From Enterococcus diestrammenae (GTDB taxonomy: Bacteria > Bacillota > Bacilli > Lactobacillales > Enterococcaceae): a DNA stretch of 46,309 nucleotides. This document shows positions 5,322 to 12,724 of the stretch, piece after piece. The notes below the pieces were generated by a model that ran no database searches, was not told the DNA's origin, and was given only the letters and a program-made list of their open reading frames with translations. Position 1 is the stretch's first letter; each line of letters opens with the position of its first letter. A program made the translations under genes and the position numbers. The DNA lies in contig NZ_MAEI01000016.1 in assembly GCF_009933255.1 (NCBI RefSeq), positions 1 to 46,309 on the forward strand, written 5' to 3'.

Positions 5322-5392
5322 AACCCTCCTGCGACTTGGGAGGAGGGATTTTTCACTTGTGAAAATTTTATAACCCCTCACTCTACAAAAAA

Positions 5393-6078
5393 GCCGGCCG
5401 GTCTTGCTTCCGGAGAATCCCTCGGGTGGTGGGACCGGTAAATGCCAACCAAAGAACAGTTGTCATTTTGCTAGCTCATCTTAGCGAACTCTGCTTAGAT
5501 GAACTGTATGCGATATGTTTCTGCTAGCTCCTTACCGAAGTCAAATATGTTGTAAGTCCAACAAAAAAAGTTGGATACAACAAGTAATTTGCTAGTTCAC
5601 CTTAGCGATTTTTGCTTAGGTGAACTGTATGCGATACGTTTCTTTAGCCCTCGGACATTCTTAATACTACACCCGAGGCATTCTCCTCCAGTAAGTCCGC
5701 CCTGTTTTATCGATAATCGATTGTTGACTTTGCTCTCCAAAGATGGCTTTTTTCTTCCAGTAAAAAGGCGGTAGCATCTCGTGAAAAAGATGAAATTTAG
5801 CATAGTAGGAATTGATATGACAGTAGCTTTCAAGATTGAGATGAATTACTTAGAGTTGGTGGCACTTGTGACACTTACTCTAAGTTTGAAGTTCAAAGGC
5901 AAATGACAAATTGCTTTGTATTTGGCATTTGCCGGTCTAGCTATCGTCATATCAATGCCTACGGAGCTAAATTTCACCTTTTTCGGGCATCACAATGACG
6001 GCATGATACGCCACTTAATTCCTGATACATCAAGCTTTTTGGAGCATAATTTTTTATAAGTTCTTTATCTACAAAAAA
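5393..6078. ncRNA. Large structured RNA candidate (element B), copy 1
   Basis: About 690 bases without a credible gene. It aligns along its length with 11425-12056: near-identical blocks at the ends (CCGGTCTTGCTTCCGGAGAA and, later, CTCCTCCAG with TAAGTCCGCC; at the right GCTAAATTTCACCTTTTTCG and CTGATACATCAAGC) flank variable hairpins. Local stems shared by both copies include CCGGTC/GACCGG, CCTCGG/CCGAGG and GTCCAAC/GTTGGA. A long-range stem joins 5781-5830 with 5936-5985; in it, three base pairs differ from copy 2 by compensatory double changes. This copy additionally holds a duplicated hairpin module (5470-5529 and 5591-5646). The strand of transcription is not settled: pairing exceptions favour neither strand, and no convincing promoter was found. 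Size and behaviour resemble large ornate RNA classes such as ROOL or GOLLD, but I cannot verify membership. Confidence 0.65.
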
Positions 6079-6134
6079 GACCTTTTTGCCAACGCCTCTC
6101 CTCTACAGGATAAGGCCACAGCAAAAAGGTCTTT
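6077..6134 (-). terminator. Intrinsic terminator downstream of the Nudix gene
   Basis: A 14-bp stem (AAAGACCTTTTTGC, 6077-6090, with 6121-6134) is followed on the leftward strand by TTTTTTGTAG. It lies about 40 bases past the Nudix stop codon and abuts the right end of the structured element. Confidence 0.75.
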
Positions 6135-6172: not shown

Positions 6173-6622
6173 TCACCCCTGCGCCTGTTTAGCTAACCAC
6201 TGGGACACCGCCCACCGATGACTGCCTCGTTTCAACAAGCTTAGCGCTTCAGCTGGTGTGTGCCATTCAATCACGTTGGTAGTTTCCGTCGGTTCAGCAA
6301 CCTTGACAAAACGAGTCACTTCATAAAAATAACCAGGATGTTCATACCAGGTATTCCGATGGCGGGAGTAAAAATATTCTACCGCTTCCCCAAAATACTC
6401 CCCGATGGTTACTTCAAAGCCAACTTCTTCGAGCATTTCCCGATCGATTGCCATCCGATGGTCTTCCCCTTTTTCAATCTCTCCTCCCGGCAAAAAATAC
6501 GCGCCATTGGGAGCTTGGACTAAGACCAAGCGATTATCTTCCGGTCGTGGTATTACCACGTATGCCCCATATCGTGCAGTATAAGGTTTCCCTGCTATTT
6601 TTTCCCCAAAAGTCGGGACCAT
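6173..6622 (-). CDS. Nudix hydrolase
   Basis: A 149-residue Nudix hydrolase. The Nudix box is complete at residues 47-69: G47, then E53, then REMLEEVGF from 61, matching GX5EX7REUXEEXGU. The central acids bind the divalent metal that helps cleave nucleoside-diphosphate-X substrates; substrate choice cannot be read from the sequence. The N-terminal strand YGAYVVIPRPEDNRLVLVQ and a Tyr-rich segment (YFYSRHRNTWYEHPGYFYEV) after the box are typical of the MutT/NudA-like group found singly in lactic acid bacteria. The start ATG has GAGGAG upstream. It stands alone, convergent with the operon at 2128-5145 across the structured element. Confidence 0.9.
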   Translation of the reverse strand: MVPTFGEKIAGKPYTARYGAYVVIPRPEDNRLVLVQAPNGAYFLPGGEIEKGEDHRMAIDREMLEEVGFEVTIGEYFGEAVEYFYSRHRNTWYEHPGYFYEVTRFVKVAEPTETTNVIEWHTPAEALSLLKRGSHRWAVSQWLAKQAQG

Positions 6623-11424: not shown

Positions 11425-12056
11425 GCCAGCCGGTCTTGCTTCCGGAGAATCCCTCGAGTTGCAGTGGGACCGGTAAATGCCAACTAAAGAATCGTTGTCA
11501 TTTACCTTGCCGAAGTCAAACTTGTTGTAAGTCCAACAAAATCGTTGGACAACAACAAGTAATTCCTCGGACATCCTTAACACTACAACCCGAGGCATTC
11601 TCCTCCAGCAAGTCCGCCCTGTTTTATCGATAAGCAATTTATTACCTTTGCTTTGTAAATCGAGCAATTATTTTCTTGTAGGGTAGCCTATGTACCGTGA
11701 AAAAGGTGAAATTTAGCATAGTAGAATTGGGTTGACAGTAGCTCTAAAGATGCGTAATGAATTACTTAGAGTTGTGGTGCTGACACCACTTACTCTAAGT
11801 TTGAATGCGCAAGGCAAAGCTAAAGGTGCGTTTGCGCATACAGTTAATCTAAACAGACACCGTTAAGATGAACTAGCAAAGACAAACAGATTTTTTGTTT
11901 GGTTTTTGCCGGTCTAGCTACCGTCAACCTAATTCCTAGGTCGCTAAATTTCACCTTTTTCGGGCATCACAATGTCGGCATGATAGGCCACTTAATTACT
12001 GATACATCAAGCTTTTTGGAACTTAATTTTTTATAAGTTTTTATCTACAAAAAATA
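11425..12056. ncRNA. Large structured RNA candidate (element B), copy 2
   Basis: About 630 gene-free bases aligned with 5393-6078. End blocks are almost identical, the middle diverges in length. Shared stems: CCGGTC/GACCGG near the left end, GTCCAAC/GTTGGAC (around 11530-11560), CCTCGG/CCGAGG (around 11565-11600), ACTTAGAGT/ACTCTAAGT (11763-11811) and the long-range stem 11700-11742 with 11916-11961. In that stem TTGGGTTGAC (11727-11736) pairs with GTCAACCTAA (11923-11932), while copy 1 has TTGATATGAC with GTCATATCAA: three positions change on both sides. It lacks the duplicated module of copy 1 but has an insertion with an 8-bp ATGCGCAA/TTGCGCAT stem (11803-11840). The flanking genes are both leftward, and the right end abuts a terminator. 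Confidence 0.65.
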
Positions 12057-12094
12057 GCAACCATGCTAGAAGTCACCTTCTAGCATGGTTGCTA
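12048..12094 (-). terminator. Intrinsic terminator of the coiled-coil gene
   Basis: A near-perfect 18-bp stem (TAGCAACCATGCTAGAAG with its complement, 12055-12094) followed on the leftward strand by TTTTTTG. It lies 22 bases past the stop codon at 12116. Confidence 0.85.
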
Positions 12095-12115
12095 CTCATC
12101 ATTACGTATTTGTGG

Positions 12116-12724
12116 TTAAACAGCGCCTTCCGTCACCAATTCATCTTGAAACTGATGCCCCTCTTTCCAATCATCCAGTTGGATTGGCTGTTGGACCTCA
12201 ATCAGTTCTCGTTTCAAGCGACGGATTTGTTCCAGTTTGCCTGAGACTTCATCCAATTGTTCTGGCAAGCTGCGACTACGTTTAGCAAAGTCTTCTAATT
12301 GCGCACGAACATGATCCACGAAGACACCTTGATTTTCCACTTGAATCCCCAACGTTTTTTCTACTTCTTGACGCCAATCCAGCATTCCATCAAACTGGCT
12401 CGCGACTTCATTTTGTAAACGGAACAGTTCATTGGTCAATTCCCGAACATTCTGTGTTTCTTCTTCCATGCGCGTTTCTTGCTCAGCTTTGAAAGTATCC
12501 GTTTGTTGGTGGGTGTATTCCAAACATTCCGCCATCAAATTTTTCCGTAAATTGTTGACGACAGCTTCCGTTTCAGTCATTTTTTTATCTTGTTCATTAT
12601 TTCGTACCCGCAAACGTCCTTCAAATTGTGCAATTTGTTTACGACTGCTGTATTGGCCGTAAATAGCTACAAAAAGTGCTACTACTGCTACCAAACAGGC
12701 GAGCATTGCGATTGTTGTTTCCAC
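12116..12724 (-). CDS. Membrane-anchored coiled-coil protein of unknown function
   Basis: A 202-residue protein that I do not recognise. It has one N-terminal transmembrane helix (residues about 4-22, IAMLACLVAVVALFVAIYG), then a cytoplasmic-looking, highly charged helical region with heptad periodicity from about 28 to 185 and an acidic end. The arrangement resembles the N-terminal anchor plus coiled coil of RmuC-type or septum-associated proteins, but no nuclease domain follows, so I do not assign that name. TTGAGGGGGATTG before the ATG serves as ribosome site. It stands alone between uvrC and the large structured element, with its own terminator. Confidence 0.7.
   Translation of the reverse strand: METTIAMLACLVAVVALFVAIYGQYSSRKQIAQFEGRLRVRNNEQDKKMTETEAVVNNLRKNLMAECLEYTHQQTDTFKAEQETRMEEETQNVRELTNELFRLQNEVASQFDGMLDWRQEVEKTLGIQVENQGVFVDHVRAQLEDFAKRSRSLPEQLDEVSGKLEQIRRLKRELIEVQQPIQLDDWKEGHQFQDELVTEGAV

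What the first reader, a model, noticed from the sequence alone, without database searches (positions are those of the whole stretch)
5393..6078. Large structured RNA candidate with compensatory changes between two copies (copy 1)
This stretch and 11425-12056 share conserved end blocks and variable hairpins. In the long-range stem, TTGATATGAC (5812-5821) pairs with GTCATATCAA (5946-5955), whereas copy 2 has TTGGGTTGAC with GTCAACCTAA: three base pairs altered on both arms, plus one G-U. Protein coding does not explain this. Length and domain style are like ornate RNAs such as ROOL or GOLLD, which are known from Firmicutes; membership is only a suggestion.
Basis: partly seen in the sequence, partly recalled or inferred. 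Interest (0 to 1): 0.85.

Follow-up and report, generated by a model that had tools for sequence, protein, structure and literature searches.

The report
Mobile repeat with outward-facing structured RNAs
The stretch is one of dozens of copies of a jumping DNA repeat that carries two back-to-back copies of a folded RNA-like motif; relatives of the motif sit at the ends of jumping genes in several lactic acid bacteria, which hints that some ordinary-looking jumping genes may use an RNA.

Summary
In detail: the long-range stem and its compensatory changes are there. But copies 1 and 2 are two of dozens. The unit (about 0.55-0.75 kb) is a dispersed repeat made of two homologous ~180-nt structured motifs, A on the minus and B on the plus strand, both reading outward. 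In 30 relatives, 94.4% of the cells of a 31-pair structure are paired and 23 pairs show two-sided changes. The genome holds 87 motif matches; 25 of 26 close pairs are divergent. The motif occurs in 33 of 395 sampled genomes of the order, 17 genera, in none outside it among 398 of the class, and matches no Rfam family at its cut-off where searched. In three other genomes it lies inside ISL3-family transposons; 17 of 72 other places have ISL3-type ends on both sides. In the window's genome 20 of 23 right ends abut a terminator-type hairpin; copy 1 has a perfect 8-bp flanking repeat. Best reading: a non-autonomous mobile element carrying an uncatalogued structured RNA. Transcription and function are inferred. 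ROOL/GOLLD membership is not supported.

The parts
5386..5393 (.). left copy of the 8-bp flanking repeat CAAAAAAG (candidate target duplication)
   Evidence: sequence; 3 of 17 copies have identical octamers (register chosen by eye)
5394..6071 (.). copy 1 of the mobile repeat
   Evidence: ends shared with other copies
5401..5696 (-). structured motif A of copy 1, carrying two optional hairpin modules
   Evidence: covariance model R1, 41.6 bits, E 7.7e-8; not in the R2 list
5467..5522 (-). optional hairpin module 1 inside motif A
   Evidence: self-match; absent from copy 2 at that place
5588..5643 (-). optional hairpin module 2 inside motif A
   Evidence: self-match; absent from copy 2 at that place
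5795..5972 (+). structured motif B of copy 1 (its outer stem runs on to about 5780-5988); holds the stem named in the finding
   Evidence: R1 188.4 bits, R2 161.8 bits
6072..6079 (.). right copy of the 8-bp repeat CAAAAAAG, overlapping the T-tract of the hairpin below
   Evidence: sequence
6079..6131 (-). terminator-type hairpin abutting the right end, downstream of the convergent gene
   Evidence: the 60 nt fold at -33.6 kcal/mol; counted; the consensus terminator scan did not list it
6173..6622 (-). convergent neighbour gene (149 aa frame)
11426..12047 (.). copy 2 of the mobile repeat
11433..11613 (-). structured motif A of copy 2, without modules
   Evidence: R1 140.2 bits, R2 161.1 bits
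11711..11949 (+). structured motif B of copy 2
   Evidence: R1 149.2 bits, R2 123.7 bits
11835..11914 (+). optional hairpin module in motif B: reversed relative to copy 1's modules but the same way round relative to the motif
   Evidence: piece (query 49-128, minus); alignment
12053..12096 (-). terminator abutting the right end of copy 2
   Evidence: the 60 nt fold at -35.1 kcal/mol
12116..12724 (-). convergent neighbour gene (202 aa frame)

Best explanation
Copies 1 and 2 are members of a dispersed, non-autonomous mobile repeat. Its core is two homologous copies of one structured motif of about 180 nt, placed back to back so that each reads outward to the nearer end of the element. The fold is a long outer stem, a short stem next to it, and two hairpins; loop and junction sequence is kept while stems change in a compensatory way. 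Related motifs travel in ISL3-type transposons and ISL3-ended small elements of other Lactobacillales, so I infer that the repeat was spread by a DDE transposase of this type, which inserts beside terminator hairpins and duplicates 8 bp. The motif most likely works as a short structured RNA, made from the element, that helps the element's own spread, for example as a transposase partner or as a control of target choice or expression. SHOWN by computation: the structure, the outward pair, the number of copies, the terminator neighbourhood, and the ISL3 link in other genomes. INFERRED: that it is transcribed, that an ISL3-type transposase moved this genome's copies, and the job of the RNA (I give this last step about 0.35).
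For: Covariation over paralogues and genera. A and B are homologous in inverted orientation (E 3.4e-12 for copy 2, 1.3e-13 for L005). 87 matches in the own genome; of 26 close pairs 25 are minus-then-plus and one plus-plus, with 18 of the 25 spacers at 84-111 bp. None of the other 9 genomes of the genus has more than a small piece. Right ends abut a hairpin in 20 of 23, left ends in 0 of 29, random 60-mers of the same loci in 146 of 2000; the longest downstream frame is convergent in 20 of 20. ISL3 link: in G190 the motif lies in a ~1.79-kb repeat with a 450-aa ISL3 transposase (PF01610 8.6e-53, NF033550 5.6e-90), between its stop codon and the right inverted repeat; the 8 copies I looked at, of 9, all show 8-bp duplications, and 6 of 8 abut a terminator-type hairpin. 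The motif also lies inside ISL3 ends in L317 (Cand. E. avicola by score; frame with one stop) and in L332 (G211, 445-aa open frame). ISL3 ends on both sides of the motif in 17 of 72 other places. G-T against A-C mismatches on the motif strand: 57:12, 62:21 in pairs predicted from both strands.
Against: The ends of the window genome's own elements do not look like ISL3 repeats (0 of 10 places with both ends, 2 of 10 with the right end at p<=0.02). 55 of the 72 other places lack two recognisable ISL3 ends. PF01610 is absent at E<=0.001 from 11 of 30 carrier genomes. G161 has many ISL3 copies, and the two read with the model (L316, L333) carry no motif. At two ISL3 copies (L191, L327) a motif lies next to the element but outside its repeats. 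A local-alignment search for inverted repeats exceeded shuffles in only 5 of 57 places, and those were not ISL3-type arms. The first target-duplication test found nothing (466 of 1000 permutations) and mean octamer identity is not significant (1185 of 10000). No promoter above chance around the two copies. No transcript data.
Confidence: 0.6

Rival explanations
1. The motif is an RNA-level regulator or insulator: a 3' untranslated structure of the transposase message, or an outward RNA, that limits expression or read-through and makes the insertion tolerable to the host; it rides along in the non-autonomous copies.
For: In G190 and Cand. E. avicola it follows the transposase gene and is followed by a small hairpin. 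In the window's genome elements sit behind terminator-type hairpins.
Against: In G211 the motif is on the other side of the transposase gene and on the opposite strand (L332). Motif copies occur in 11 of 30 carrier genomes with no ISL3 gene found, where a transposase regulator has nothing to regulate.
Confidence: 0.22
2. The motif acts as folded single-stranded DNA or as a cruciform at the element ends, recognised by a recombinase, and is never needed as RNA.
For: It lies right beside the right inverted repeat where both ISL3 ends were found (outer end 26-43 nt after the motif); both strands fold nearly equally well (-74.25 against -71.6).
Against: Wobble bias on the motif strand in both A and B (B 103:24, A 36:18, with structures predicted on that strand; 57:12), though cells are not independent and G-T also occurs in DNA. 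A and B lie on opposite strands, unlike one-strand transposons (recalled from IS200/IS605 biology).
Confidence: 0.2
3. The repeats are host-serving non-coding RNA genes that multiplied, comparable in kind to ROOL or GOLLD.
For: Large, structured, many copies, found in 17 genera.
Against: Amplified in this species but not in its 9 genus mates, decayed and rearranged copies, transposon ends in several genera, no Rfam match, and 362 of 395 sampled genomes of the order have no match (strict filters).
Confidence: 0.07
4. Compensatory changes come from template switching in imperfect palindromes, without selection on structure.
For: The arms are inverted repeats; one copy has motif B inverted in place (L022), so exchange between arms happens.
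Against: Loop and junction columns, which such repair would not protect, are among the most conserved across genera, and A-C mismatches are rarer than G-T.
Confidence: 0.06

Closest known systems
ISL3-family insertion sequences (PF01610; NF033550)
   Same: In G190, Cand. E. avicola and G211 the motif lies inside an ISL3 element (open frames in G190 and G211; the frames beside it in Cand. E. avicola are interrupted or short). 8-bp duplications at A/T tracts, often beside hairpins. Small elements with ISL3 ends carry it elsewhere.
   Different: ISL3 copies without it exist (L316, L333 of G161; the copy of the window's genome at C17 has the motif only outside its left repeat); the window genome's elements have no recognisable pair of ISL3 ends.
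MITEs and modular repeats (BOX, ERIC, REPIN; recalled)
   Same: Short, non-autonomous, intergenic, modular, with hairpin modules present or absent; an inverted pair as in REPINs.
   Different: Contains a ~180-nt branched motif with strong covariation over several genera, not a simple hairpin; no obvious terminal inverted repeat in this genome.
Bridge RNAs of IS110 elements (PMC11208160)
   Same: A structured RNA encoded in the non-coding end of an insertion sequence (abstract and passages seen).
   Different: IS110 recombinases are another protein class (recalled); no guide loops pairing with target or donor were looked for systematically here.
ROOL and GOLLD large RNAs
   Same: Large structured non-coding sequence in Firmicutes (from the finding and recall).
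   Different: No Rfam match; two separate 180-nt motifs on opposite strands.

Membership tests
ROOL / GOLLD (Rfam) | match to the family's covariance model at its gathering score | tested here: not met
   Searches (gathering; permissive): no match to either
Any Rfam 15 family | match at gathering score over the motif | tested here: not met
   the only weak hit over copy 1 is Teg49, E 2.9, 18.3 of 186 bits
ISL3-type element (window copies) | ISL3 transposase gene inside | tested here: not met
   the genome's four PF01610 places (C17, C36 twice, C15) lie on other contigs
ISL3-type element (window copies) | ISL3-type terminal inverted repeats | tested here: not met
   0 of 10 places of this genome with both ends
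ISL3-type element (window copies) | 8-bp target duplication | tested here: inconclusive
   3 of 17 copies perfect, copy 1 included (79 of 10000 permutations as high; register chosen by eye); mean identity not significant; longest-run test on 13 pairs negative
ISL3-type MITE (relatives in other genera) | ISL3-type ends on both sides of the motif | tested here: met
   17 of 72 places, e.g. E. aquimarinus 6 of 8; not met in the other 55
Structured RNA family | covariation above shuffled and slid controls | tested here: met
   phylogenetic null (R-scape) not run
Structured RNA family | transcribed | not testable with these tools
   no RNA data held
IS110-type bridge RNA | loops complementary to target and donor | not tested
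   no systematic comparison made

The most novel reading that the evidence does not exclude
A DDE transposase family (ISL3) uses a transposon-encoded structured RNA, read outward at the element's end, to move or to find transcription terminators, and non-autonomous elements parasitise it by carrying the RNA motif alone, in this genome at both ends.
Probability: 0.2. Interest if true: 0.92.

Novelty: new variant of a known kind. Interest (0 to 1): 0.72.

Why it matters
It adds a structured RNA-type family, unmatched in Rfam 15 in the loci searched, that spans 17 Lactobacillales genera in the sample and is tied in part to a common transposon family. RNA partners were shown for IS110 recombinases (PMC11208160, passages) and, from recall, for IS200/IS605-associated nucleases; one for a DDE transposase would be a surprise. 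It also makes testable why such elements land next to terminators.

Tried and rejected
Rejected: ROOL/GOLLD or another Rfam family; a single 690-nt RNA (A and B are homologous on opposite strands); phage origin (no match in the phage collection); plasmid origin (only 11 partial Enterococcus matches); group II intron (by eye only: no intron-type 5' end); a sigma-70 promoter in the element (2 found in each region, 1.8 and 2.5 expected).

Tests that failed or were changed: one search timed out. The first terminator rule gave 8 of 23 right ends, 0 of 27 left, 40 of 1000 random, because it demanded T's just behind the last pair; a hairpin-only rule written after seeing that gave 20 of 23, 0 of 29, 146 of 2000. 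Inverted-repeat search by local alignment: 5 of 57 above shuffles; a profile built only from ISL3 elements with a transposase gene did better. Longest shared run of flanks: no signal. RNAalifold energies do not separate the strands. Literature searches found nothing on such an element (open-licence library, listings and abstract starts only, except passages of PMC2864571, PMC9208149, PMC11208160 and PMC11702846); one search looked for bridge RNAs.

Selections: searches dropped three rows (one diverged, two cut short by my own coordinates). A3 took 30 representatives without modules, out of 69 matches and 30 (these include opposite-strand and decayed matches). One search used 23 of 28 right-end matches (one duplicate locus, three not reaching the end, one too near a contig end left out). 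Searches scored only a capped number of candidates per genome (5, 26, 6), the latter two with stricter filters, so counts are lower bounds. The 72 places are a chosen subset and not all independent; L265 (named C. maltaromaticum) and L262 (263_SSPC) share exact stretches, so one of these names may reflect contamination.

Full report
OBSERVATION. The window is contig C16 of a 3.16-Mb genome in 54 contigs; no call named its species, and Enterococcaceae is inferred from named relatives. Searching that genome with copy 1 gives 106 matching pieces, so copies 1 and 2 are two of dozens. Of the other nine genomes of the genus two have a small piece and seven none. In the family search, 5 of the 104 other genomes (these nine included) have a match, the longest covering 121 of 701 bases (five candidates scored per genome).

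ANATOMY. Twelve aligned copies and the end profiles share a left end (..AAAGCCGGCCGG.. or ..AAAACAGGGCGGAC..) and a right end (..TTTTTTATAAGTTCTTTATCTA). Between them lie two domains. A profile of domain B matches domain A on the other strand (E 3.4e-12 for copy 2, 1.3e-13 for L005), and the joint alignment shows the same architecture with different stems: AATTAC-hairpin-GTTTGA, then a second hairpin, then GGTC, inside a long outer stem. A ~60-bp hairpin module is present or absent at junctions and in the aligned copies has the same orientation relative to the motif.

STRUCTURE TEST. Alignment A3 holds 21 rows from this genome (A, B and diverged paralogues), 8 from two genomes of genus g10 and 1 from g13. 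Thirty-one pairs: 94.4% of 929 cells paired, 23 pairs with two-sided changes, 228 such cells; no shuffle of 500 reaches these, and slid versions give at most 42 cells. G-T cells outnumber A-C cells on the motif strand 57 to 12, and 62 to 21 in pairs predicted from both strands. The same bias holds separately for B, 103:24, and A, 36:18 (structures predicted on the motif strand). The structure predicted from the opposite strand gives 63:67 when counted the same way. Cells are related by descent, so this supports rather than proves that the motif strand is the one that folds; RNA and single-stranded DNA cannot be told apart this way.

DISTRIBUTION. Models R1 and R2. Own genome: 87 matches with each, at E<=0.01 and E<=1e-4 (R1's list includes some opposite-strand matches). 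Of 26 close pairs 25 are minus-then-plus, one plus-plus; 18 of the 25 are 84-111 bp apart and the rest 155-235; 35 matches are unpaired, among them motif B of copy 1, whose motif A only R1 detects. Family: 5 of 105 genomes with R1. Order: 33 of 395 genomes, 17 of 80 genera with R2. Class: 4 of 398, all four within the same order. A pattern scan gave 80 named loci; R2 matched 63 of them and none of the other 17, of which 16 are from outside the order. Names of the 63: Enterococcus aquimarinus, E. lemanii, E. rivorum, Cand. E. avicola, two Desemzia, Pisciglobus halotolerans, Aerococcus sp., Carnobacterium maltaromaticum, Cand. Tetragenococcus pullicola and 'Streptococcus sp. 263_SSPC'. Equating handles with names (G062 with E. 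aquimarinus, G063 with Cand. E. avicola and so on) rests on equal scores and is inference.

LINK TO TRANSPOSONS. In G190 a ~1.79-kb repeat is shared by five near-complete places and a sixth, interrupted one; it encodes an ISL3 transposase, and the motif lies between its stop codon and the right inverted repeat. Eight copies examined all show 8-bp duplications, and 6 of 8 abut a terminator-type hairpin on one side. In L317 (G063) the motif at 2344-2514 lies between ISL3-type ends at 874 and 2633, behind a transposase frame with one stop; L269 and L241 have shorter frame pieces just upstream. In L332 (G211, 445-aa open frame) the motif at 643-869 lies between the left end at 566 and the transposase gene, on the minus strand. 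In these three genomes the motif's 3' end points to the nearer element end, as A and B do here. At L191 (this genome) and L327 (E. rivorum by score) a motif lies just outside an ISL3 element. A profile of ISL3 ends, built from elements with a transposase gene, is found on both sides of the motif in 17 of 72 other places, with the right end 26-43 nt after the motif; chance at the chosen level would give well under one. Both ends were not found in E. rivorum (0 of 10), E. lemanii (0 of 6), 263_SSPC (0 of 6) or the window's genome (0 of 10). Of 30 carrier genomes 19 have a PF01610 match and 11 none.

INSERTION SITES IN THIS GENOME. Right ends abut a strong hairpin in 20 of 23 cases, left ends in 0 of 29, random 60-mers in 146 of 2000; the longest downstream frame is convergent in 20 of 20 cases with one (the stricter first rule gave 8 of 23). 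Copy 1 is flanked by CAAAAAAG on both sides; 3 of 17 copies have identical octamers against 0.47 expected, but mean identity is not significant and an unregistered test saw nothing. A published E. faecium case reports an 8-bp duplication at an rRNA-operon terminator with an ISL3-family element at one end of the inserted DNA (PMC11702846, passages); it agrees with this target type.

MECHANISM. Shown: a structured motif under constraint, mostly paired outward, present at dozens of places of which the tested right ends mostly lie beside terminator-type hairpins, and carried by ISL3-type elements elsewhere. Inferred: ISL3-type transposition of the window's copies, transcription, and a role of the RNA in the element's spread. 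The alternative roles are listed with their refuting tests.

NOVELTY. No Rfam family matches it where searched, and no paper in the searches named in Tried and rejected describes it. As a transposon-borne structured sequence it is a variant of a known kind; if the RNA serves a DDE transposase it would be new in kind.

Noticed in passing
L022 (G000:C2:236347-236524): Motif B is inverted in place relative to the rest of its element, probably by exchange between the arms of its outer stem; it is the only plus-plus pair.
   Followed up: partly
L009, L011, L012, L014, L015, L018 (motif A): Motif A lacks the first hairpin, as if the two hairpin modules had recombined and deleted what lay between.
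   Followed up: partly
L041, L043, L044, L045 (genome G001, same genus): Another species has its own composite repeats with the same hairpin module followed by AATTAC-stem-GTTTGA, not detected by model R1 at E<=0.1.
   Followed up: partly
L049, L050 (genome G047): Hairpin-module relatives lie in yet other repeats, by eye behind terminator-like hairpins.
   Followed up: no
L064 (NZ_LR135429.1) and nine further E. faecium plasmid records; L065 (NZ_CP037956.1): A decayed single motif A sits on conjugative Enterococcus faecium plasmids (one record opened); an E. hirae plasmid has only the right end, next to a terminator-like hairpin.
   Followed up: partly
L015 and L016: A second type of tail follows motif B (TTTTTGTACCATCG..) but ends in a similar CTTAGTCTA-type right end beside a hairpin.
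   Followed up: no
L109, L110, L111 (genome G062): Some copies carry a different optional insert in the second hairpin, so optional modules arose more than once.
   Followed up: no
L190 (genome G149): A minus-then-plus motif pair 81 bp apart occurs in another family of the order; L185, L161 and L247 hold same-strand neighbours.
   Followed up: partly
L191 (G000:C17:16701-16869) and L327 (genome G082): A motif lies just outside the left repeat of an ISL3 copy, so motif elements and ISL3 elements also land next to each other.
   Followed up: partly
L265 and L262: Records named Carnobacterium maltaromaticum 757_CMAL and Streptococcus sp. 263_SSPC share exact stretches around the motif (3 of 17 60-mers): contamination or recent transfer.
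   Followed up: partly
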